Positions 3,053 through 55,166 of a stretch of DNA of 64,000 bases are shown here, one piece after another. The stretch is from Bradyrhizobium amphicarpaeae. Lineage in GTDB: Bacteria; Pseudomonadota; Alphaproteobacteria; Rhizobiales; Xanthobacteraceae. The translations under genes were made by a program, and so were the position numbers. How positions within the stretch are numbered: the first letter of the stretch is position 1; each line of letters starts with the position of its first letter. The DNA is taken from assembly GCF_002266435.3 (NCBI RefSeq), contig NZ_CP029426.2:3564001-3628000 (forward strand). Reading direction: 5' to 3'. The notes under the pieces are model-generated. The model ran no database searches, was not told the origin of the DNA, and worked only from the letters and a program-made list of their open reading frames with translations.

Positions 3053-5191
3053 ATGAGCACAGCAGAGCCGCATGACGGCGTGGATGGCCGGGTCAAGCCC
3101 GGCCATGACGGGCGGAGAGGGTGGCTTGCCTTTCGGGTTCTGTCGGTGGCCGCGCTCACCCTCGTCCTCGCCATCATCGGCTTCGTCGGCTGGGTCTATT
3201 CCCTCGGACCTCTCCCGCTCGACGAAGCCCGGCACGTCTCCACCACCATCGTCGACCGCAACGGCAAGCTGCTGCGCGCCTATGCGATGCCGGACGGTCG
3301 CTGGCGGTTGCCCGTCGATGCCAAATCCAACGTCGATCCGACCTATCTGAAACTGCTGTTCGCCTATGAGGATCAGCGCTTCTACGCGCATAACGGTCTC
3401 GACCCGCTGGCGCTCGGGCGTGCCGCCCTGCAGCTCGCGACACGCGGCCACATCGTGTCGGGCGGCTCGACCATCAGCATGCAGCTGGCCCGGCTGATGG
3501 AGCCGCGGCGGCAGCGTTCGCTCTACGCCAAGCTGCGGCAGATGGTTCGTGCGATCGAGATCGAGCGCAGCATGAGCAAGGCGCAGATCCTCGATCTCTA
3601 TCTCGCGCTGGCGCCTTACGGCGGCAATCTCGAGGGCATTCGTTCCGCCTCCATCGGCTATCTCGGCAAGGAGCCGAAGCGCCTGTCGCTGGCCGAGGCG
3701 GCGCTGCTGGTCGCGCTGCCGCAATCGCCGGAGACGCGGCGCCTCGACCGCCATCCCGAGGCCGCGCGCAAGGCGCGCGACCGCGTGCTCGACCGCATGG
3801 TCGAGGAGCATGTGGTCAGCGTGGACGACGCCAGGCAGGCCAAGGCCGTGCCCGTGCCAAAGCTGCGCAAGCCGATGCCGATTCTGGCGCCGCATGCCTC
3901 CGATACCGCGCTGTCGACGGTCAAGGACACGCCGGTCATCAAGCTGACGCTGGATGCGAATCTGCAGAAGGTTCTGGAGCCGCTGGCGCGAGATCGCGCG
4001 ATCGCGCTCGGCCCGAACATCTCGGTCGGCATCATCGTGGTCGACAATGACAGCGGCGACGTGCTGGCGCGTGTGGGGTCGGCTGATTATTTCGACGAAA
4101 GCCGGGCGGGGCAGGTCGATATGACCCGCGCGATCCGCTCGCCGGGCTCGACGCTCAAACCCTTCATCTACGGGCTCGCCTTCGAGGACGGCTTCGTTCA
4201 TCCGGAGAGCCTGATCGATGATCGTCCGGTCCGCTTCGGCTCCTACGCGCCGGAAAATTTCGACATGACCTTCCAGGGCACGGTACCGGTCAGGAAGGCG
4301 CTGCAACTCTCGCTGAACGTGCCGGCGATCGTGTTGCTCGATCGCGTCGGCTCCAGCCGGCTGGCGTCCCGGCTGCGGCAGGCCGGCGGCAATCTGGTTC
4401 TGCCCAAGGACGAAGCGCCGGGCCTCGCCATGGGGCTTGGCGGCGTCGGTGTGACGCTGCAGGATCTCGCCCAGCTCTACACCGGCTTCGCCCGGCTCGG
4501 CACCACCAAGCCGTTGCGCGAGGTGATGGCTGACAAGGACGACCGGGAGCCGCTTCGGCTGCTGGATCCCGTCGCGGCCTGGCAGGTCGGCAACGTTCTG
4601 CTGGGAACGCCGCCACCGGAGAATGCCGCACACAACCGCATCGCCTTCAAGACCGGCACCTCCTACGGCTACCGCGACGCCTGGTCGGTCGGGTTCGACG
4701 GCCGGATGACCATCGGCGTCTGGGTCGGTCGTCCCGACGGTGCGCCGGTTCCGGGCCTGATCGGCCGCGTCGCCGCCGCACCGATCCTGTTCGATGCCTT
4801 CGCGCGCACCGGCAAGACGCTGGCCGCATTGCCGAAGCCGCCACGGGGAACCCTGGTTGCCAGCAATGCCAAGCTGCCGTTGCCGCTGAAACGGTTCCGG
4901 CCGGTGGGAGAGCTGGTACGGACCGGCCGCGAGCAGGCGCTGCACATCCAGTTTCCGCTGAACGGGTCGCGGATCGATGTCGATCGCTCCGGGGGCCAGG
5001 AGAGTGCAGCGATGCCGGTCAAGGTCGCCGGCGGCGTGCTGCCCATGACCGTCATGGTTAACGGTACCGCGCTCGGCGAGATCGACGGCCGCCGCCAGCG
5101 CCTGATCGATCCACCGGGTCCCGGCTTTGCGCGGCTCACCGTGATCGATGCCACTGGCGCCGCGGACACAGTCGTCATTCGAATTCAATGA
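3053..5191 (+). CDS. pbpC: Penicillin-binding protein 1C (bifunctional glycosyltransferase/transpeptidase)
   Basis: Class A PBP that polymerises and cross-links peptidoglycan at the inner membrane's periplasmic face. After a cytoplasmic tail comes one membrane segment (VLSVAALTLVLAIIGFVGWV). The GT51 domain shows EDQRFYAHNGLDPLALGRA with the catalytic Glu, then GGSTISMQLARLM and the PYGGNLEGIRSAS stretch. The transpeptidase domain shows SPGSTLKPF (SxxK), QLSLNVP (SxN) and FKTGTSYG (KTG). A short C-terminal beta domain (HIQFPLNGSRIDVDRSG) matches the PBP1C-type C-terminal domain. ATG 3053 was chosen; GTG 3029 is in frame upstream, and the only later in-frame start before the membrane helix is GTG 3080, inside a repeat. 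The gene lies immediately after the macroglobulin gene and is probably co-transcribed with it. The N-terminal tail HDGVDGRVKPGHDG is encoded by a repeat element rather than by ancestral pbpC sequence. Confidence 0.93.
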   Translation: MSTAEPHDGVDGRVKPGHDGRRGWLAFRVLSVAALTLVLAIIGFVGWVYSLGPLPLDEARHVSTTIVDRNGKLLRAYAMPDGRWRLPVDAKSNVDPTYLKLLFAYEDQRFYAHNGLDPLALGRAALQLATRGHIVSGGSTISMQLARLMEPRRQRSLYAKLRQMVRAIEIERSMSKAQILDLYLALAPYGGNLEGIRSASIGYLGKEPKRLSLAEAALLVALPQSPETRRLDRHPEAARKARDRVLDRMVEEHVVSVDDARQAKAVPVPKLRKPMPILAPHASDTALSTVKDTPVIKLTLDANLQKVLEPLARDRAIALGPNISVGIIVVDNDSGDVLARVGSADYFDESRAGQVDMTRAIRSPGSTLKPFIYGLAFEDGFVHPESLIDDRPVRFGSYAPENFDMTFQGTVPVRKALQLSLNVPAIVLLDRVGSSRLASRLRQAGGNLVLPKDEAPGLAMGLGGVGVTLQDLAQLYTGFARLGTTKPLREVMADKDDREPLRLLDPVAAWQVGNVLLGTPPPENAAHNRIAFKTGTSYGYRDAWSVGFDGRMTIGVWVGRPDGAPVPGLIGRVAAAPILFDAFARTGKTLAALPKPPRGTLVASNAKLPLPLKRFRPVGELVRTGREQALHIQFPLNGSRIDVDRSGGQESAAMPVKVAGGVLPMTVMVNGTALGEIDGRRQRLIDPPGPGFARLTVIDATGAADTVVIRIQ
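3071..3116. repeat. Bradyrhizobium-type palindromic repeat inside the 5' end of pbpC
   Basis: The core is an inverted repeat, ATGGCCGGG (3084-3092) and CCCGGCCAT (3098-3106), around TCAAG. The flanks CATGACGGCGTGG and GACGGGCGG fit the dispersed element that translates as RVKPGHDG on one strand and MAGLDPAIH on the other. I recall this as common between genes in Bradyrhizobium and relatives. Here it is translated as part of the PbpC N-terminal tail. Confidence 0.75.
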
Positions 5192-46527: not shown

Positions 46528-47079
46528 TCAAAGATCACGAAAAAAGAGATTTAACAACTCCTTCAAGCGGACGTCGCCGTCATAATCTAGCGACAGAAAC
46601 ATGGAAGTGGCCATTAGGGAATGCATCACAAGGAGCGGCCTCCAGCGCTGTTTGAAGGCCGTCAAGTCTGTGAGGATGAGTTCACTGCCCACTTCAGGGT
46701 GCGCACCTACGTTCCGAGCCGAATGACACGCAAATGTATAGCACAAATTGTCCTGTAGCGCGGCGTTTGGCCTGTAGCAGCAAATATCAGACCAGTGTTC
46801 TGATATAAGCCCGGTTTCCTCGACAACCTCTTGTTTGATTGCATCTAAAGGAAGGCTTCCTTGCTCGATCAGCCCTCCTGGAAATTCGATCGTATAGTCG
46901 TCAATGCCATGACGATACTGCTTTACCAGCGCCAGCAAATTATCGCTTGTGAACACAATGGCGTTGACCCAATTAGGGCACTTCAGAGTATGAAATTTCG
47001 CAGGGGTTCCGGCCGCAGTATTGACCGTACGAGTGTGCACCGAAAATACATCGAAGTTGTAGACTTCAGATTCCTTCAT
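46528..47079 (-). CDS. Nudix hydrolase-like protein with degenerate Nudix box
   Basis: 183-residue protein with a Nudix fold signature GGLIEQGSLPLDAIKQEVVEETGL region (split here as GGLIEQGSLPLDAIK and QEVVEETGL). The catalytic EVVEE core is kept, but the first box glutamate is Ser and the usual Arg before the core is Gln, so activity is uncertain. The N-terminal VWVNAIVFT-like strand (NWVNAIVFTSDNLLALVKQYRHGID) is typical of ADP-ribose pyrophosphatases. It is the last gene of a five-gene minus-strand operon, and its start overlaps the preceding stop by 14 bases. Base composition is lower in GC than the flanks. Either a divergent hydrolase or a nucleotide-binding sensor is possible. Confidence 0.75.
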   Translation of the reverse strand: MKESEVYNFDVFSVHTRTVNTAAGTPAKFHTLKCPNWVNAIVFTSDNLLALVKQYRHGIDDYTIEFPGGLIEQGSLPLDAIKQEVVEETGLISEHWSDICCYRPNAALQDNLCYTFACHSARNVGAHPEVGSELILTDLTAFKQRWRPLLVMHSLMATSMFLSLDYDGDVRLKELLNLFFRDL

Positions 47080-47695
47080 ATCTTTCAGCTTGCTGCTTAA
47101 GCCAATCGATCTGTGTCGGCGAAAAATTCAATTCGATCAATTGAGCATTCTCGTAGTGTCGAACACGATATCCCTCACCGCGCTCAGGGCCTTTCATGTC
47201 AAACAAGTTCTGCAGGAGGATTAATATTGACGTCGTTGCTACGATCAAATTGACCCGTTGCTCGCCGGTACATTCTAGCAAATAATGTATCCCTCGACCG
47301 TAGAACGACCGGGGATCTTCCATGCCGTCTATATCTACGTCACATAGCTCAATCTCACCAGCGCGCCATTCATCCATAGACTTACTAGACGTTGGATAAA
47401 GGCGTCGAGCCTCTACAATAGGAACGCCTGCCAGAACACCCAAATGGATCGACTTTAGCTCGTCTCCAATAGTCATAGGAACGTCCAACGCGGTAGCCAA
47501 AATCTGTGCTGTTTCGATCGTTTGTGCCGTTGGGCAAGCAATCACTTGGTCAGGCAGGCGATCGAAGCTACGAATGTTCTCAGCCAGTAGTTCAGCTTCC
47601 AACCTGCCGGTCGGAGTTAAAGCCGCTCCTGGTCCGCCAGGAATACCTACAAGATTCTTCTCGCATTCAGCATGTCGGGCTACGAGGAGTTTCAC
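47066..47695 (-). CDS. Histidine phosphatase superfamily protein lacking key catalytic residues
   Basis: 209-residue phosphoglycerate-mutase-like protein starting at GTG 47695, in a four-base GTGA overlap with the upstream acetyltransferase gene. The N-terminal LLVARHAECEKN keeps the first catalytic histidine and arginine (RH). The usual S-x-x-x-R-A-x-Q-T stretch reads ACPTAQTIETAQIL with Gln for Arg; the L-x-E-x-x-x-G motif reads ELKSIHLGVLAG without the acid; and the second histidine (V-x-H-G-G) reads LIVATTSILILL. Three of five core residues are therefore missing, suggesting a pseudoenzyme or very divergent activity. It belongs to the coupled low-GC operon. Confidence 0.75.
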   Translation of the reverse strand: MKLLVARHAECEKNLVGIPGGPGAALTPTGRLEAELLAENIRSFDRLPDQVIACPTAQTIETAQILATALDVPMTIGDELKSIHLGVLAGVPIVEARRLYPTSSKSMDEWRAGEIELCDVDIDGMEDPRSFYGRGIHYLLECTGEQRVNLIVATTSILILLQNLFDMKGPERGEGYRVRHYENAQLIELNFSPTQIDWLKQQAERYEGI

Positions 47696-48336
47696 GTGGG
47701 GCGCTCTTTTTTGACTTTCCCGGGACTGCCCACAATCAATGATCCAGGCGGAGTATCGCGACGCACGAACGAGAGCGCTCCGATGGTACACCAATCCCCG
47801 ATATGGATCTGCTGTGCCACCGCCGATCCCATACCAAAATACACCCCCGTGCCGATGACAGTATCAGAACCTAGATTGACCCCCGGTGCGATAGACACGA
47901 ATCCACCCAGCCTTGTTCCGGCACCTATGGTAGAGTTAGCGTTGAGTACGGAGGACAGTCCAACATGGGATCCTGGGCCCAAGACAACCCCCGGGAACAG
48001 GATACTCCCATCGTCAACTCTCGCGTCGCCTAGGAGGGTGGCGCGTGGGTGAATGATAGTGGCAAAGCGTATTGTCGGAATCGACCGCACGATGCGGTTG
48101 TAAACTGCATATCGCGAGCGACAGTCGCCAATGGCGACGATAACTGCATATCCATCGACCTGCGCAAAGAGAGGAGCAAGAGTGTCTATGGGTCCTAAAA
48201 CGGGCACTCCGTCGACAATAGATGCTCTCCCCGGATCGTCATCAACGATGCCAACAACGGAGAATTTGCCCTGCGCACGCGCCACGGCAATTGCATCCCT
48301 TCCTAAGGTCGAAGCCCCGACCACTATCAAATCCAT
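47692..48336 (-). CDS. NeuD/PglD-like sugar O/N-acetyltransferase
   Basis: 214-residue protein with two parts. The N-terminal Rossmann-like domain (MDLIVVGASTLGRDAIAVARAQG, FSVVGIVDDDP) binds the sugar nucleotide in PglD/NeuD enzymes. From about residue 95, hexapeptide repeats form a left-handed beta helix (IIHPRATLLGDARVDDGSILFPGVV, ANSTIGAGTRLGGFVSIAPGVNLG). The usual catalytic His is not obvious; IIHPRAT is the best candidate. The C-terminal GSLIVGSPGKVKKERPT is typical. Family members acetylate sialic-acid-type or bacillosamine-type sugars. Its coupling to Nudix and phosphatase genes suggests a small modified-nucleotide or sugar pathway. Confidence 0.82.
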   Translation of the reverse strand: MDLIVVGASTLGRDAIAVARAQGKFSVVGIVDDDPGRASIVDGVPVLGPIDTLAPLFAQVDGYAVIVAIGDCRSRYAVYNRIVRSIPTIRFATIIHPRATLLGDARVDDGSILFPGVVLGPGSHVGLSSVLNANSTIGAGTRLGGFVSIAPGVNLGSDTVIGTGVYFGMGSAVAQQIHIGDWCTIGALSFVRRDTPPGSLIVGSPGKVKKERPT

Positions 48337-48345
48337 TCCGCGCTC

Positions 48346-49068
48346 TTAGGGAATTGAGTTGGCACCAATGATTTCGGATTTGATGCACTTGTGTTCAACG
48401 AAGTCGAATTTAAGAAAAGCAAACAGATCTTGTTTGATGTGGGGCTTTAAGGTCCGAGCGAGGTGCGCGTTTGCCGTGATGGCTTTAATCGCTTGCTCTG
48501 TTCCGTGCCCGTGCAATCCAAACACCACCAGCGCGGGTTTGGCATCCGGACCATTCCTGTCCAATTTGAGCAATCGAATAATCAGTCCGTAGTCTTGTGT
48601 AACCAGCCCTGATGGACTGTAAGCCGCCCGAAACTGGCCGCCACCGAAGAAGAAACAGCCCTCCGCCGCGTCGTAGCGAACGGGAAGGCGATCTGCCAGC
48701 CTTGAAAGCACGTGGTCGGAAACTCCATTGGCTTTGGGCCCGCCCAGAGAAACGAAGCTGTCCTTCTGTAACTGGTCCATGTCAGCCGAGGACCCGGATT
48801 TGATTTCTACGTTACGGCCGAGCGATGCTAAGACACTTCGTACATCCGAAAACGCTTGGACGTCGGTCAGACTTATCTTTCGAGGACTCCTAGGTTGGGC
48901 GCCGGGCTTGTCGGTGAGAACTACGGCAAGGGTACCTTTTCCCTTCAAGAACGGGCGCCAGAATTGTTTGCTGCCATACGTCTTTATAAATTGTAGTGCT
49001 CTGGTCGTCCCTAGTCCGAGCACGTACCAAATGGCGCTCGCCAGAAGATTTATTCCCAAATCCCCCAT
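48346..49068 (-). CDS. Membrane-anchored protein of unknown function
   Basis: 240-residue protein I do not recognise. One N-terminal hydrophobic segment (GINLLASAIWYVLGLG) is followed by a soluble domain. Visible features are TLAVVLTDKPG, FSDVRSVLASLG, the turn FVSLGGPKANGVSDHVL, FFFGGGQFRAAY, QDYGLIIRLLKLD, and VVFGLHGHGTEQAIKAI. Alternating strands and helices with Gly-rich turns look like a Rossmann-like ligand-binding fold; this is inference. The start has a strong SD (GGGAAGGAAC). It lies 11 bases after the second Nudix gene and 9 bases before the acetyltransferase gene. Anchoring beside nucleotide-processing enzymes suggests a sensor or effector role, unproven. Confidence 0.75.
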   Translation of the reverse strand: MGDLGINLLASAIWYVLGLGTTRALQFIKTYGSKQFWRPFLKGKGTLAVVLTDKPGAQPRSPRKISLTDVQAFSDVRSVLASLGRNVEIKSGSSADMDQLQKDSFVSLGGPKANGVSDHVLSRLADRLPVRYDAAEGCFFFGGGQFRAAYSPSGLVTQDYGLIIRLLKLDRNGPDAKPALVVFGLHGHGTEQAIKAITANAHLARTLKPHIKQDLFAFLKFDFVEHKCIKSEIIGANSIP

Positions 49069-49079
49069 GTTCCTTCCCG

Positions 49080-49571
49080 CTAATACTTTGCAGTAATCGA
49101 CAACACCGCAGAAACGGTAGGGGCGTGAGTGATGACACCGGCTCGAACCATTTCGATGGCTTCTTCAACAGGCACATGCCTGACCTTGAATTCCCCCTTC
49201 AATGCGCTGGGGCGGCCAACTGCTCGCGCTTCAAACACGTGCGTTCGATGAATTGTTGTCGAAAGATCGAGGTCAAGCTTGAAGAGAAAACGAGTGTCGC
49301 ACAAACCTAGTCCAGTTTCTTCGCCGAACTCTCGTTGAGCGCATTCAAGAGGAGACTCGCCCGTTCTCAGAGTTCCTCCGGGAAGCTCCAACGTGCTTTG
49401 TGCGATGGTCCGCCGAAGTTGTTCTACTAGTATGAGCGCGCCATCTACGTCGAGCGCAGCGATACAAGCAGAATCAGGGAATACGTAGGTTGTCCCTTTT
49501 TGGATATTGACGCTGTTCGGGCTCAAACGATCACTTCCCTTTATAGCTACGATCGGCTCGACCTCGCTCAT
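49080..49571 (-). CDS. Nudix hydrolase
   Basis: 163-residue Nudix protein and first gene of the low-GC operon. The Nudix box is canonical: GGTLRTGESPLECAQ followed by REFGEETGL (GX5EX7REUXEEXGU). The N-terminal strands (DSACIAALDVDGALILVEQLRRTIAQSTLELP) match ADP-ribose pyrophosphatase-type enzymes, as does a C-terminal helix after EFKVRHVPVEEAIEMV. It should hydrolyse a nucleoside diphosphate linked to another group, with Mg2+; ADP-ribose or a sugar nucleotide is plausible. Together with the degenerate Nudix at the operon end, it brackets the other three genes. Confidence 0.85.
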   Translation of the reverse strand: MSEVEPIVAIKGSDRLSPNSVNIQKGTTYVFPDSACIAALDVDGALILVEQLRRTIAQSTLELPGGTLRTGESPLECAQREFGEETGLGLCDTRFLFKLDLDLSTTIHRTHVFEARAVGRPSALKGEFKVRHVPVEEAIEMVRAGVITHAPTVSAVLSITAKY

Positions 49572-50380: not shown

Positions 50381-50620
50381 CCTCCAACTCTGTCAGTGCG
50401 AGCGGAGCGGACGAAGTCGTTGCCGAACGCTGCCTGCGTTTTGCTTCAAATTGCAACCCGCACGTGCAAGAAGTCTTGATTGGCGGTGATCTAGAGGAGA
50501 TGGCCCGCCTTGAACGCGGCCCCGGGCGACAGCGACTAATCCCTGGAGTGCACAAGGATCAGTGGAACGTGATCGTAGTTCCTCTTCCTAAAGTACCAAA
50601 ATGGTGCTTTAGTGCTTTTC
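50381..50620. other. Gap upstream of the TnpB-like/PspA gene
   Basis: No gene is supported. The end of this gap carries an AT-richer segment and an inverted repeat (50590-50610) immediately before the next start. Confidence 0.45.
50590..50610 (+). promoter_or_regulatory. Inverted repeat just upstream of the TnpB-like/PspA start
   Basis: AAAGTACC and GGTGCTTT (one mismatch) flank AAAAT, ending ten bases before ATG 50621. It could be an operator, a hairpin masking the start, or a relic of a transposon end. Confidence 0.35.
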
Positions 50621-51775
50621 ATGAGCCCGTCGTCCCGAAATGCGCCGTCCGCGCTGCGTTACAGGCTTGCCCCTGATCCGGCCGCCAAGGCCGCGCTGGA
50701 GGCGACGTTCAGGGCTTATGACCGCATGATGGAGATCCTCGATGAGGTCGCGCGGAGCCACAATGTCGGCTCCAACGTCGTGCTGCTGCATGCCCACGCC
50801 TATGACCCGATCCGCAAAGCGACCGCGCTGCCCTCGCGCCTGGTGACGCTGGGCTTGCGTGACCGCACCGAGTATCGCGCGGCGCAGGGCCGCCGCCTGC
50901 CGCTCGACGACAAGCTCGCCAAGATCAAGGGCCCGGCCACCATTTCGATTGCGACCGTGCAAGGGCGCATCACTGTGCCGTTCGATTATGCCGGCTATGC
51001 CGAGGGCTGGGGGCAGAGCGTGCCCGCGCGCCTGATCCGCACCGACGACGGCTTTGAAGTTCACTACGGCGTCACGCCGAACAACCTGCCAGAGGAGGAG
51101 AACGCCATGGATACCATCGCTGCCGCTCCCGAAAACTTCCTGTCCCGGGTCGGGCGCCTGATCGCCGGCATTGCCTATGACGCGATCGAGCAGGCGGAAG
51201 GCAAGAACAAGCTGAAAGTGGTCGGACAGGCCATCCGCGAGATCGAGCGCGCCGAGAGCGAGGCGCGCGATGCGCTCGCCGCCGCGCGTGCCGAGGAATA
51301 CCGCCTCAACGCGCGTCGCACCGAGATCGAACGCGAGATGGCCGATCTCGCGCCCAAGATCGAGGGGGCGATCGCCGATAGCCGCGACGATCTCGCCCGC
51401 GCCGGGATTGCGCGCCAGATGGATCTGGAGGCGCAGTTCGACGTGCTCTCCCGCGCCATCGACGAGAACAACGAAAAGATCGAGCAATGCATCACCTCGC
51501 TGCGCGCGGTGCTGTCCGCGCTCCAGGACGCCGAGCAGCGCCGTGCAGATCTCGAAAAGAGCGAGGCGGCCGCAAGCCATCAGGGCTCGAATTCCTCCCG
51601 AAAGCAGGCCGCCGGCTCTGCGGCAGCGAAGGCGCTGCGGGCGGGCAGGGCGGTGGCACGCGCCACCGGCGTGCCGCCGGGCATTCCCTATTCGAGCGAC
51701 ATCGACGAGCTCAGCACGCTGCATCGCGACAAGGAAATTGCGGCGAGGCTCGCGCGGTTGAAGTCGCGCTCCTGA
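50621..51775 (+). CDS. TnpB-N-terminal-like domain in frame with PspA/IM30-family protein
   Basis: A single 384-codon frame with two unrelated parts. Residues ~10-150 (ALRYRLAPDPAAKAALEATF, Y-DPIRKATALPSRLVTLGLRDRTEYR, ITVPFDYAGYAEGW, ARLIRTDDGFEVHYGV) look like the N-terminal half of an IS605 OrfB/TnpB protein and stop just where its RuvC nuclease would begin; no zinc ribbon follows. Residues 163-384 (MDTIAAAPENFLSRVGRLIAG, IREIERAESEARDAL, long coiled coil) are a PspA/IM30-like protein that coats and protects the inner membrane. A strong SD (AGAGGAGGAG) before the internal ATG 51107 suggests that PspA (222 residues) is also, or only, made separately. It heads an operon with YqiJ-like and flotillin genes. 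Confidence 0.8.
   Translation: MSPSSRNAPSALRYRLAPDPAAKAALEATFRAYDRMMEILDEVARSHNVGSNVVLLHAHAYDPIRKATALPSRLVTLGLRDRTEYRAAQGRRLPLDDKLAKIKGPATISIATVQGRITVPFDYAGYAEGWGQSVPARLIRTDDGFEVHYGVTPNNLPEEENAMDTIAAAPENFLSRVGRLIAGIAYDAIEQAEGKNKLKVVGQAIREIERAESEARDALAAARAEEYRLNARRTEIEREMADLAPKIEGAIADSRDDLARAGIARQMDLEAQFDVLSRAIDENNEKIEQCITSLRAVLSALQDAEQRRADLEKSEAAASHQGSNSSRKQAAGSAAAKALRAGRAVARATGVPPGIPYSSDIDELSTLHRDKEIAARLARLKSRS
51091..51109 (+). promoter_or_regulatory. Strong internal ribosome binding site and start of the PspA part
   Basis: AGAGGAGGAG ends six bases before ATG 51107, in frame with the long ORF. The match to the anti-SD is much better than at the upstream ATG 50621, which has no recognisable SD. 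Confidence 0.65.
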
Positions 51776-51785
51776 GTGCCGCGCC

Positions 51786-52448
51786 ATGAGCGCATTGCTC
51801 GAACATGTCATGTCGCCGGAGGTCAGGCCGTTCGCGATCGCGGCGGCCATGATCGTCATCGTCGGCTCGATCGAAGTGGTCTCGATGCTGGTCGGGGCGT
51901 CCTTGAGCGAGATGCTCGGCACCAACATCGATTTCGCTCACCCCAGCGACAATGGCGTCATCAATGCCATTTCCTGGATCAATGTCGGCGGCGTGCCGCT
52001 GCTGATCTTCCTGCTGCTGCTGCTCGGCGCCTTCTCGATCACCGGCTTCCTGATCCAGGACATCGCGCGGCTGGTGGCCGGGCCGTTGCCGGCGACGCTC
52101 GCCTCGGTCGGAGCGATCGCGGTCTCGATTCCCTTGGTCCGCGCCACCAGCCGCGCCATCGCGCGGGTGATCCCCAAGGATGAAAGCTACGTCGTCGGCC
52201 TCGGGGATCTCGTCGGCCGCATCGGTGAGGTCGTCATCGGCCCGCTCGACCAGGGGCCGCCCGGCAAGGTCAGCGTCGCCGACATCCACGGCAACCGCCA
52301 TTTCGTCTGGGCGGTTGCGGCGCCGGCGTCGGCACCTTTGCCGCAGGGGACCATGGTCCTGCTGGTCGATCGCGACGGCACGCGTTTTGTGGCGGTCAAG
52401 GCCGACGATGAACTCAAACCGTCCAAGCCCAGTCTAAGCAGCAGCTGA
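51786..52448 (+). CDS. YqiJ/DUF1449-like OB-fold inner-membrane protein
   Basis: 220-residue protein. Three hydrophobic helices (IAAAMIVIVGSIEVVSMLVG, GGVPLLIFLLLLLGAFSITGFLI, LPATLASVGAIAVSIPLV) lead to a C-terminal beta-rich domain from about residue 130 (ESYVVGLGDLVGRIGEVVIGPL, GTRFVAVKADDEL) resembling the OB fold of NfeD/YqiJ proteins. YqiJ-type proteins are partners of flotillins in membrane microdomains. It starts ten bases after the PspA-like gene and ends 19 bases before the flotillin gene, so the three are one operon. Confidence 0.82.
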   Translation: MSALLEHVMSPEVRPFAIAAAMIVIVGSIEVVSMLVGASLSEMLGTNIDFAHPSDNGVINAISWINVGGVPLLIFLLLLLGAFSITGFLIQDIARLVAGPLPATLASVGAIAVSIPLVRATSRAIARVIPKDESYVVGLGDLVGRIGEVVIGPLDQGPPGKVSVADIHGNRHFVWAVAAPASAPLPQGTMVLLVDRDGTRFVAVKADDELKPSKPSLSSS

Positions 52449-52467: not shown

Positions 52468-54162
52468 ATGTTCGACATCGCAGTTCCGGCCATCATCGGC
52501 GTCGCGCTGATTGTCGCGCTCGGGATCGTCTTCACCATCCTCTACAAGCGCGCCACCCGCGACGAGGCCTTCGTGCGCACCGGCCTCGGCGGCAAGAAGG
52601 TCGTGCTCGACGGCGGCGCCATGATCCTGCCGATCTTCCACTCCTATGCCAGCGTCAATTTGAAGACGCTGCGGCTCACCGTGGAGCGGAAGGAGCGGGA
52701 GTCCCTCATCACCAAGGACCGCCTGCGCGTCGACATCGTCGCCGAATTCTACGTGCGCGTCCGCCCCGACGACGAGAGTATCGCGCTTGCAAGCCAGACG
52801 CTGGGTGCGCTGACCAATGACGCCGAAGCCCTGCGCAACCAGGTCGAGGCGAAATTCGTCGACGGCCTGCGCTCGGTGGCGGCGACCATGAGCATCCTCG
52901 AACTCCAGGAGAAGCGCTCGGACTTCGTCAAGCATGTGCAGGCAACGGTCGAGTCGGACGTCAAATCCAACGGCCTGGAACTTGAATCCGTGTCGCTGAC
53001 AAAGCTCGACCAGACCGACGTCAAGTTCTTCAACCCGGAAAACTTCTTCGACGCCGAAGGTCTGACCCAGCTCAAGACCGTCACCGAGACCCGCCGGCGT
53101 GACCGCAACTCGATCGTGCGCGACAACGAGGTGGCGATCGCGCAAAAGGACCTCGAGGCGCGGCAGCAGACCCTGACGATCGAACGGACCAAAAAGGAAG
53201 CCGAGCTTTCGCAGGAGCGAGACATCGCCAACAAGACGGCCAGCACCCGCGCCGAAGTCGCAACCGCGACGCAGACCGCGCGCCTCACCGAGGAGAACGC
53301 CCGCATCGACACGGACAGGGCGGTTGCCGAGAAGGAGGCCGGCGCCAAGCAGGTCAAGGAAACCGCGGTGATCGAGTCGGATCTGGCGATCAACAAACGC
53401 AAGACCGACGCCCAGCGCGAGATCCAGATCGCGACGCAAGAGAACGAGATCCAGATCGCGGCCAAGAGCAAGCAGACCTCGGAAGCCGTCGCCGAGGCCA
53501 AGACCGCCGAAGCGCTTGCGGTCTCCGCCGAGGAAAAGGTCGTGACCGCACGCGCGGTCGAGGTCGCCGATCGTGCCCGTCTCACCCAGGTGCTGGAAGC
53601 GCGAACCGAGGCCGAGCGCAAGTCGACCGAGCTGATCGTCGCGGCCGAGGCCGAGAAGAAGGCCTCGCTCGATCGCGCCGAGGCCGTGAAGACACTGGCC
53701 ACGGCCGAAGCCGAGTCCAACAAGATCAAGGCCGTCGGCGTCCGCAACATCGGTGAGGCGGAAGCCGCCGTCATCACCATGAAGAACGAGGCGCAGAACA
53801 AACTCGGCAGCAACGTCATCGACTTCGAGATCGCCAAGAAGCGGATCGAGACGATGCCGTTGGCGTTGGCCGAGATGGTCAGGCCGATCGGCAACCTGAA
53901 GGACGTCCGTATCCTGCACACCGGCGGCGCGTTCGGCGGCAACGGCGCCGGCGGAGGCAATGTCGGTTTCGGCGAGGGGCTCGCCGGCGAGCTGCTCAAG
54001 GTGCACGCGCTGCGTCCGATGATCGACGAGATCCTGCGCCAGAGCGGCTTTGCGCCCGGCGATGATCCCGTCAAGGCGCTGGTCGGCGCCGTGACCGGGA
54101 AGAGCAACGGCGCCGCCGTACCGGCGCAGGCGCCGGAGAAGACGAACACCGCCGATCTATGA
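52468..54162 (+). CDS. Flotillin/SPFH-domain family protein (YqiK-like)
   Basis: 564-residue flotillin. A single N-terminal membrane helix (AVPAIIGVALIVALGIVFTILY) is followed by an SPFH domain (GLGGKKVVLDGGAMILPIFH, RLRVDIVAEFYVRVRPDD). A long Glu/Ala-rich coiled coil spans about residues 215-430 (EKEAGAKQVKETAVIESD, AEEKVVTARAVEVADRARL). The C-terminal part (GAFGGNGAGGGNVGFGEGLAGELLK) ends in helices. Flotillins scaffold membrane microdomains and influence fluidity. Coupling with PspA-like and YqiJ-like proteins points to envelope-stress or membrane maintenance. Confidence 0.9.
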   Translation: MFDIAVPAIIGVALIVALGIVFTILYKRATRDEAFVRTGLGGKKVVLDGGAMILPIFHSYASVNLKTLRLTVERKERESLITKDRLRVDIVAEFYVRVRPDDESIALASQTLGALTNDAEALRNQVEAKFVDGLRSVAATMSILELQEKRSDFVKHVQATVESDVKSNGLELESVSLTKLDQTDVKFFNPENFFDAEGLTQLKTVTETRRRDRNSIVRDNEVAIAQKDLEARQQTLTIERTKKEAELSQERDIANKTASTRAEVATATQTARLTEENARIDTDRAVAEKEAGAKQVKETAVIESDLAINKRKTDAQREIQIATQENEIQIAAKSKQTSEAVAEAKTAEALAVSAEEKVVTARAVEVADRARLTQVLEARTEAERKSTELIVAAEAEKKASLDRAEAVKTLATAEAESNKIKAVGVRNIGEAEAAVITMKNEAQNKLGSNVIDFEIAKKRIETMPLALAEMVRPIGNLKDVRILHTGGAFGGNGAGGGNVGFGEGLAGELLKVHALRPMIDEILRQSGFAPGDDPVKALVGAVTGKSNGAAVPAQAPEKTNTADL

Positions 54163-54369: not shown

Positions 54370-54738
54370 ATGAGATATTTTTTGTCTGGACTGATCGCGA
54401 TCGGCCTTTCGATCGCCGCCATGCCCTCGTTCGCGGCCGACGCCCGCAACGTCACCGTCGTCAACGAGACCGGCTATGCCATCAAATTCCTGGGCTTCAA
54501 CGCGCCGGACGATGGCCTGGACGAATGGGATAACGAGCTCGACAAGGTGTTGCAGAACCAGGCGAGCACCTATGTCGAGTTCGACGAGGACGACGACGGA
54601 TGCGTCTGGAACATCCGCGTCGACTGGAAGAACTACGACGAAGCCGTGCTCTGGAAAAACGTCAACCTCTGCAAGATGACCGCACTTCGGTTGCGCTACG
54701 ATCCCGGCACCAAGACCACCTCGTTCCTCGCGGAGTAG
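54370..54738 (+). CDS. Small secreted protein of unknown function
   Basis: 122-residue precursor with a signal peptide (MRYFLSGLIAIGLSIAAMPSFA) cleaved before ADARN. The mature domain is acidic and beta-rich (VTVVNETGYAIKFLGF, YVEFDEDDDGCVWNIRVDW, LRLRYDPGTKTTSF), with cysteines in DGCVWN and NLCKM that may form a disulfide. It is probably periplasmic. I recall no characterised family. The SD is weak (GGGGAAATTTCAT). Confidence 0.75.
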   Translation: MRYFLSGLIAIGLSIAAMPSFAADARNVTVVNETGYAIKFLGFNAPDDGLDEWDNELDKVLQNQASTYVEFDEDDDGCVWNIRVDWKNYDEAVLWKNVNLCKMTALRLRYDPGTKTTSFLAE

Positions 54739-54874
54739 CCTTCGGCCGACATGACCCGGAGGAGGGGGCGTCCCAACCTTCCTCCGGCGCGTTGCGGATG
54801 ATGACGAATTCGTCCTTTGCAAGCGCAAGCGGCTTTGTTATACGCAGCCGCGCGCGAACGACTGGTTCGCCTTT

Positions 54875-54949
54875 TCCTCGGTAGCTCAGCGGTAGAGCAT
54901 CCGACTGTTAATCGGATGGTCGCTGGTTCGAATCCAGCCCGGGGAGCCA
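54875..54949 (+). tRNA. tRNA-Asn (GTT)
   Basis: A 75-base cloverleaf with encoded CCA. The acceptor arms are TCCTCGG and CCGGGGA, the anticodon loop CTGTTAA gives GTT, and the T-arm contains GGTTCGAATCC. Confidence 0.96.
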
Positions 54950-55166
54950 AATCCTACCGCAAATTCAACAGGTTATGAGCGGGCTCTCGCGTATTACACG
55001 ATCTCGTTGCTGTGGCTTCTGAACGAAGCCTTGCGGGCTCCAGGCCGGGAATCGCATTCAAGCAGATGTGTTGTGGACTGGCCCGGTCACGCCATGCAGA
55101 CGGCGCCAAATCGACTCAATTGAAATCGAGCTTCGCGATCGCCGGATCTTAACGGAGCTGATTCCC

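What the first reader, a model, noticed from the sequence alone, without database searches (positions are those of the whole stretch)
50621..51775. TnpB-like N-terminal domain read in frame into a PspA/IM30 protein
The first ~150 residues resemble the N-terminal half of IS605 OrfB/TnpB and end where the RuvC nuclease should begin; the remainder is PspA-like. A domesticated, nuclease-less TnpB fragment heading a PspA-YqiJ-flotillin operon would be unusual. It could act as a nucleic-acid-binding regulator of the operon, as an appended domain on PspA, or be a transposon scar.
Basis: partly seen in the sequence, partly recalled or inferred. Interest (0 to 1): 0.8.

Follow-up and report, generated by a model that had tools for sequence, protein, structure and literature searches.

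The report
Nuclease-less TnpB domain fused to PspA
In many rhizobia and some relatives, the DNA-recognition half of a transposon RNA-guided nuclease has lost its cutting half and become a conserved front part of a membrane-stress protein, probably letting that protein switch its own operon on and off.

The parts
50590..50610 (+). Inverted repeat AAAGTAC-N7-GTGCTTT (likely operator, in the likely promoter)
   Evidence: Only exact AAAGNAC-N7-GTNCTTT site in the 7.03-Mb genome; conserved in position across lineages with paired half-site changes
50621..51106 (+). TnpB-derived WED+REC domain, residues 1-162 of the long form; start without Shine-Dalgarno, possibly leaderless
   Evidence: start context
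50648..50668 (+). WED first strand (residues 10-16)
   Evidence: AlphaFold2 DSSP; order strand-helices-barrel as in TnpB (PMC10097598 passages)
50678..50881 (+). REC helices (residues 20-87), three helices
   Evidence: ISDra2 TnpB has four
50894..51073 (+). rest of the WED beta-barrel (residues 92-151)
51092..51101 (+). Shine-Dalgarno (gaggaggaga) inside the coding sequence, for the internal PspA start
51107..51775 (+). PspA/IM30 part, with its own internal ATG at 51107
51786..52448 (+). YqiJ-like membrane protein
   Evidence: Pfam YqiJ_N E 1.6e-19, YqiJ_OB 4.8e-10
52468..54162 (+). Flotillin (SPFH/Band 7)
   Evidence: Pfam Flot E 1.9e-29, Band_7 6.9e-16

Best explanation
The gene makes two proteins. 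A start codon without Shine-Dalgarno, 10 nt after an inverted repeat in the promoter region, gives a long form: the WED+REC half of a TnpB, with RuvC gone, fused to PspA. An internal Shine-Dalgarno gives PspA alone. In TnpB the WED/REC cleft reads the TAM as double-stranded DNA. I propose that the domesticated cleft reads the two half-sites of the inverted repeat as a PspA-held dimer or oligomer, without guide RNA, and represses (or tunes) its own PspA-YqiJ-flotillin operon; on membrane stress PspA moves to the membrane/flotillin, pulls the domain off the operator, and the operon is induced, with the short form as bulk effector. Shown: homology, in-frame fusion, purifying selection, operon, paired repeat with constant spacing, internal Shine-Dalgarno. 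Inferred: that both forms are made, that the domain binds the repeat, that it needs no RNA, the sign of regulation, the titration by membrane, and leaderless translation.
For: WED+REC fold and homology, single clade 100/100. TnpB reads the TAM duplex in the WED/REC cleft, while the RNA scaffold is held mainly by WED and RuvC (PMC10097598 passages): what is left here is the DNA-reading part. Net charge is +3..+17 in 13 of 14 TnpBs and has a median of -2 in 141 distinct N-domains, against retained RNA binding. The repeat is unique in the window's genome. An exact copy is somewhere in the genome in 112 of 113 congeneric genomes with the open-frame domain and in 4 of 82 without (recount). It is absent (4 or more mismatches to 12 fixed bases) near 5 N-domain-less operons and 2 decayed loci. 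Half-sites change on both sides with N7 constant: AAAGCAC/GTGCTTT (110 of 160 loci), AAAGGAC/GTCCTTT (one genome, G280), AAAACAC/GTGTTTT (G385), AAAGTAC/GTACTTT (G190), and 6 of 7 symmetric CAATGAC/GTCATTT (G524). The only genes shared by all 16 neighbourhoods compared are the three operon genes, so no linked regulator is a candidate. Long start: 10-12 nt after the repeat in 129 of 132; Shine-Dalgarno energy of -6 or better in 0 of 130, against 96 of 106 at the internal start. Precedents: PspA shuttles between nucleoid and membrane as controller of PspF (PMC3709507 abstract); an SPFH protein brings PspA to the membrane (PMC8581546 abstract).
Against: No binding data. In many of the 82 genomes the whole operon may be missing (not checked), so the co-occurrence partly follows operon presence; only 7 YqiJ-flotillin operons without an intact domain were checked directly. 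In 3 genomes without the domain (G027, G093, G104) such a repeat stands before another ORF. The repeat is degenerate in L271 and has 5 of 7 symmetric arm positions in 7 of 160 loci. Single-sequence significance is modest (7 of 7 arms in 0.5-5.5% of shuffles; 6 of 7 arms, as in the window's own copy, are at chance level). The window's own promoter does not pass a sigma-70 scan, and the same scan flags the repeat as terminator-like. Three distinct loci have no Shine-Dalgarno to speak of at the internal start (-2.9). From recall: TnpB is not known to bind its TAM stably without RNA.
Confidence: 0.48

Rival explanations
1. The domain is an appended protein-protein or oligomerisation module on PspA (for instance docking to flotillin, YqiJ or the nucleoid); the inverted repeat is bound by an unlinked regulator.
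For: Net charge of the domain is near zero or negative. PspA works as an oligomer (general knowledge). The repeat could belong to another factor, as such repeats exist before another ORF in 3 genomes without the domain.
Against: The repeat is unique in the window genome, accompanies the domain and is absent near the N-domain-less operons checked; no linked regulator is shared.
Confidence: 0.27
2. The repeat is an RNA hairpin in the mRNA leader and the domain, descended from an RNA-binding protein, binds it to control translation of its own long form.
For: A stem with 7-base loop directly before the start codon; T-G (wobble) variants are commoner than C-A (19 against 7 of 160 loci). TnpB WED binds RNA (PMC10097598 passages).
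Against: The repeat lies over promoter-like hexamers in many lineages, with the ATG 10-12 nt further on, so the transcript probably starts at or near the ATG (not mapped); C-A variants break an RNA pair; the domain has lost its basic charge.
Confidence: 0.13
3. A TldR-like RNA-guided repressor that borrows an omega-RNA from elsewhere.
For: TnpB-derived; precedent of RNA-guided TldR transcription factors (PMC13418256, start of abstract in search listings).
Against: No RuvC, which in ISDra2 TnpB shares the RNA scaffold and the heteroduplex channel; charge lost; no PF07282 TnpB found in the own genome at E 0.01.
Confidence: 0.03
4. A transposon scar or unexpressed leader with no function.
For: Two decayed copies exist, L079 and L080.
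Against: 113 of 195 genomes keep a long open frame; median dN/dS 0.072-0.177, near PspA's 0.081-0.122; kept across families as one clade.
Confidence: 0.02

Closest known systems
TnpB, in particular the subfamily of alignment A6 (Deinococcus, Bacillota, Actinomycetota, Alphaproteobacteria, archaea and others)
   Same: WED and REC domains, order and sequence motifs
   Different: No RuvC, no TNB; chromosomal operon gene, one copy in the window's genome (a second, E 0.2 hit is not credible); basic charge lost
TldR, TnpB-derived RNA-guided transcription factors
   Same: Domesticated TnpB, likely regulator
   Different: TldR is RNA-guided (PMC13418256, start of abstract); here RuvC is gone altogether and the domain is fused to PspA
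PspA/PspF of E. coli
   Same: PspA coupled to control of its own operon, with membrane contact (PMC3709507 abstract)
   Different: There PspA controls a separate enhancer-binding ATPase; here a DNA-binding candidate is fused to PspA
PspA-band-7/flotillin-YqiJ operons of Ravi et al. 2024, and B. subtilis PspA with YdjG/H/I
   Same: PspA works or lies with flotillin/SPFH and membrane partners (PMC11237479 passages; PMC8581546 abstract)
   Different: The passages read name no TnpB-derived domain; those operons carry a CesT/Tir protein beside PspA
PspA fusions named by Ravi et al. 2024 (NlpC/P60, PspAA)
   Same: PspA with an added domain
   Different: A WED/REC domain is not among those in the passages read; 'transposase' occurs 0 times

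Membership tests
TnpB | WED domain with REC inserted after the first strand | tested here: met
TnpB | RuvC nuclease with DED triad | tested here: not met
   The frame passes into PspA about where RuvC-I would start; no match to the RuvC half
TnpB | TNB zinc-ribbon domain | tested here: not met
   Absent from the Pfam scan of the whole protein
TnpB | associated omega-RNA/reRNA | not tested
   No RNA search was run
TldR | TnpB-like protein with inactive RuvC that uses a guide RNA (RuvC detail recalled) | tested here: not met
   RuvC absent rather than inactive; guide RNA not tested
PspA/IM30 | PspA_IM30 coiled-coil domain | tested here: met
   Pfam 40.1 bits over cut-off 33.9; helices 173-318 in the model
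PspA (NCBIfam phageshock_pspA equivalog) | equivalog score cut-off | tested here: not met
   34.1 bits against 242.95: a diverged PspA family member
Leaderless gene | transcription start at or within a few nt of the start codon | not testable with these tools
   Only indirect: position of promoter-like hexamers and lack of Shine-Dalgarno
DNA operator | two-fold symmetric site kept by paired change | tested here: met
   an RNA hairpin would show the same
DNA operator | bound by a protein | not testable with these tools
   -

The most novel reading that the evidence does not exclude
The TAM-reading cleft of a TnpB has become a stand-alone, RNA-free, two-fold DNA-binding domain, and by fusion to PspA it forms a one-gene envelope-stress switch: sensor, repressor and effector, with the repressor-effector and the pure effector made from two starts in one frame. 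To my knowledge it would be the first DNA-binding regulator built from a TnpB/Cas12 recognition lobe without nuclease domain or guide.
Probability: 0.4. Interest if true: 0.92.

Novelty: new variant of a known kind. Interest (0 to 1): 0.82.

Why it matters
From recall, the known domesticated TnpBs keep the guided architecture. Here the recognition lobe alone is kept under selection across several bacterial families, which separates TAM reading from RNA guidance in nature. It would also give a testable account of how a PspA-YqiJ-flotillin operon is controlled in well-studied rhizobia (a copy is in Rhizobium johnstonii 3841, L147).

Tried and rejected
Sequence-only recognition: Pfam, PHROGs, PDB-sequence and NCBIfam searches with 17 N-domains gave nothing convincing (PF12323 in 4 of 17, best E 0.17; TIGR01765 transposase N-terminal domain in 1 of 17, E 0.047; unrelated families scored as well or better, such as TIGR01486 in 4 of 17, E 0.0089). 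A set of general TnpBs gave only 21% in hhalign; one with two distinct TnpBs of the right subfamily gave 78%; 14 gave 99.1%. The 14 were chosen from tblastn hits of one such TnpB: 11 of 12 plasmid records fetched (one, H1, was not annotated and was left out of the alignment) plus L104, L222 and L224.

Stand-alone WED-REC proteins: a profile search scored 5680 candidates (length limit about 88-280 aa) and gave 19 hits, which by eye are short or cut versions of the fusion; full-length TnpBs were outside its length limits. In viral contigs 15 stretches matched a pattern, none encoded a relative.

First dN/dS attempt counted codons back from the internal start without alignment, inflating values where indels occur; replaced by codon alignments. 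There pairs outside dS 0.05-1.5 were left out: used N/PspA 406/406 of 406 (Bradyrhizobium A and B alike), 998/1312 of 1431 (Rhizobiaceae), 35/44 of 45 (f11/f50).

TnpB-residue equivalence: I did not map Y52, K76, Q80 of ISDra2 onto this domain; alignments were printed for three other chains only, and the ISDra2 match begins at its residue 102.

Papers: searches found no report of a TnpB domain on PspA in their listings; the library lacks most subscription journals. Of 5 papers I saw passages or the abstract; of the rest only search listings.

Set aside: terminator or attenuator reading of the repeat (flagged), because its distance to the start codon is nearly fixed. Sigma-32 promoter reading: thought of, not tested.

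Full report
What is there. The ORF 50621-51775 encodes 384 aa. Residues 174-325 match PspA_IM30; the full-length model (pLDDT 76.7, pTM 0.41) shows the N-domain, a low-confidence stretch (152-171) and the PspA helices. YqiJ and flotillin follow at once. The genome is a single 7.03-Mb contig; the closest named homologues are from Bradyrhizobium and Bradyrhizobiaceae. A second PspA lies elsewhere in the genome.

Is it kept? In 195 genomes of the genus 115 have a match; two are remnants (L079, L080), and 113 sit in open frames of 336 aa or more. One of the 113 (G174, L069) has a broken frame near the PspA C-terminus. In 397 genomes of the order 34 matched the combined model, 24 with the N-domain, in seven families, and 10 with PspA only; at most four candidates per genome were scored, so these are lower bounds. 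In 385 genomes of the class 6 matched the N-domain model, two of the own genus and four from three families of other orders; at most nine candidates were scored. A scan of named genomes found 217 relatives and kept 80: among them Rhizobium, Neorhizobium, Ensifer, Pararhizobium, Endobacterium and Bradyrhizobium. Of 40 loci read for context, 30 have a full-length N-domain; in all 30 it is in one frame with PspA and followed by YqiJ, and in 29 by flotillin too (L065 ends inside YqiJ). Two are the remnants. Eight have PspA only: five with YqiJ and flotillin (L093, L094, L095, L096, L098) and three without either in the stretch (L097, L099, L103). Codon-aligned median dN/dS, N-domain against PspA: Bradyrhizobium A 0.072/0.102, B 0.120/0.115, Rhizobiaceae 0.177/0.122, families f11/f50 0.147/0.081. 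So the N-domain is translated and selected.

Two starts. The PspA part begins at an in-frame ATG (51107) preceded by gaggaggaga. Over 106 distinct loci (of 160 scanned) the anti-Shine-Dalgarno energy there is -9.5 (median) against -2.4 for 1397 other ATGs in the same frames; 96 of 106 reach -6, against 7.7% of controls; the ten others run from -5.9 to -2.9. The residues that encode it differ between lineages (EEENA, EEN, EEKT, QKETT, EERS), so the signal, not the peptide, is kept. At the long start 0 of 130 reach -6. A 162-aa domain in front of PspA's N-terminal membrane helix should hinder it (inference from PspA biology, recalled), which would explain why a free PspA is also made.

The repeat. 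Ten bases before the long ATG lies AAAGTAC-N7-GTGCTTT (50590-50610). In 160 loci (some genomes counted twice) 112 have 7 of 7 symmetric arm positions, 39 six, 7 five, and 2 three (L053 and L090, the same place, which carry CAATGAC-N7-GTCATTT instead). The other paired variants are each from one or two genomes: AAAGGAC/GTCCTTT (G280), AAAACAC/GTGTTTT (G385), AAAGTAC/GTACTTT (G190), and, six of seven, AAAGGAT/GTCCTTT (G588, G1084) and AAAGTAT/GTACTTT (G1010). In L271 (G1152) it is degenerate. The start codon is 10, 11 or 12 nt beyond it in 129 of 132 distinct sequences, 13 in one, and not found in two (the two loci scoring under 5 left out). In many lineages, by eye, TTG lies directly 5', and hexamers such as TATGTT (35 of 130) or TACGTT (16) begin at its last base, but also TAGTGC (25) and others. 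This resembles the TTG-N16-18-TATA RpoD consensus of B. japonicum, where 320 gene starts map 0-10 nt before the start codon (PMC4842269 passages). The window's own copy is a poorer promoter match and is not called by the scan. In the window's genome the site is unique; one other place has it with one mismatch. In the genus, 112 of 113 genomes with the open-frame domain have an exact copy (G146 has it with one mismatch at the promoter), and 4 of 82 others: G048 in a stretch that reads like coding sequence, and G027, G093, G104 before another ORF. The list of places was cut; those I compared lie beside the domain. Since many of the 82 may lack the operon altogether, the better test is the operons without an intact domain: in 5 N-domain-less operons and 2 remnants nothing closer than 4 mismatches to the 12 fixed bases was found in 460-570 nt.

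How it may work. In TnpB the WED/REC cleft contacts the TAM bases directly, while RNA is held mainly by WED and RuvC (PMC10097598 passages). The retained half is thus the DNA reader. Its net charge has a median of -2 in 141 distinct N-domains (range -9 to +5, window copy +1), against +3..+17 in 13 of 14 TnpBs; one haloarchaeal TnpB is -12. Among 16 neighbourhoods only the three operon genes recur in all; some downstream ORFs recur in 4-8 of them, mainly Rhizobiaceae (the first four members of each cluster were printed, flanks differ in length). I therefore favour a PspA-tethered operator-binding autoregulator released by membrane stress, at 0.48. Rivals are given with their odds; the plain appended-domain rival is the strongest.

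Novelty. Databases name these proteins 'PspA/IM30 family protein', 'phage shock protein A' or hypothetical. PspA operons with flotillin and YqiJ are described, with a CesT/Tir protein, in the PSP survey whose passages I read; it says that over 98% of PspA homologues show little variation and names tandem repeats, NlpC/P60 and PspAA among the rest (PMC11237479). The seven literature searches listed under Tried and rejected found no report of this fusion.

Noticed in passing
G085 (L079) and G153 (L080): Remnant N-domains: the repeat, the start and most or all of PspA are gone while YqiJ and flotillin stay open, so the fusion can be lost with its repeat.
   Followed up: partly
G027 (L277), G093 (L275), G104 (L278): The inverted repeat, with a second palindrome beside it, stands before another, unidentified ORF in three genomes without the N-domain.
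   Followed up: partly
window 54875-54949: tRNA-Asn (gtt) gene; the ORF listed at 54696-54950 on the - strand overlaps it and is probably spurious.
   Followed up: yes
window 46528-49571, - strand: A run of ORFs that look by eye like two NUDIX hydrolases, a histidine phosphatase and a sugar O-acyltransferase; not tested.
   Followed up: no
window 54370-54738: Small ORF after the flotillin with a signal-peptide-like start (by eye) and no Pfam family over its cut-off.
   Followed up: no
L069 (G174) around 4401-4446: The PspA C-terminus is split between two frames, by true frameshift or sequencing error.
   Followed up: no
G000:C1:1063195-1063872 (L032): A second PspA in the same genome, in an open frame of 240 aa, too short for the N-domain.
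   Followed up: no
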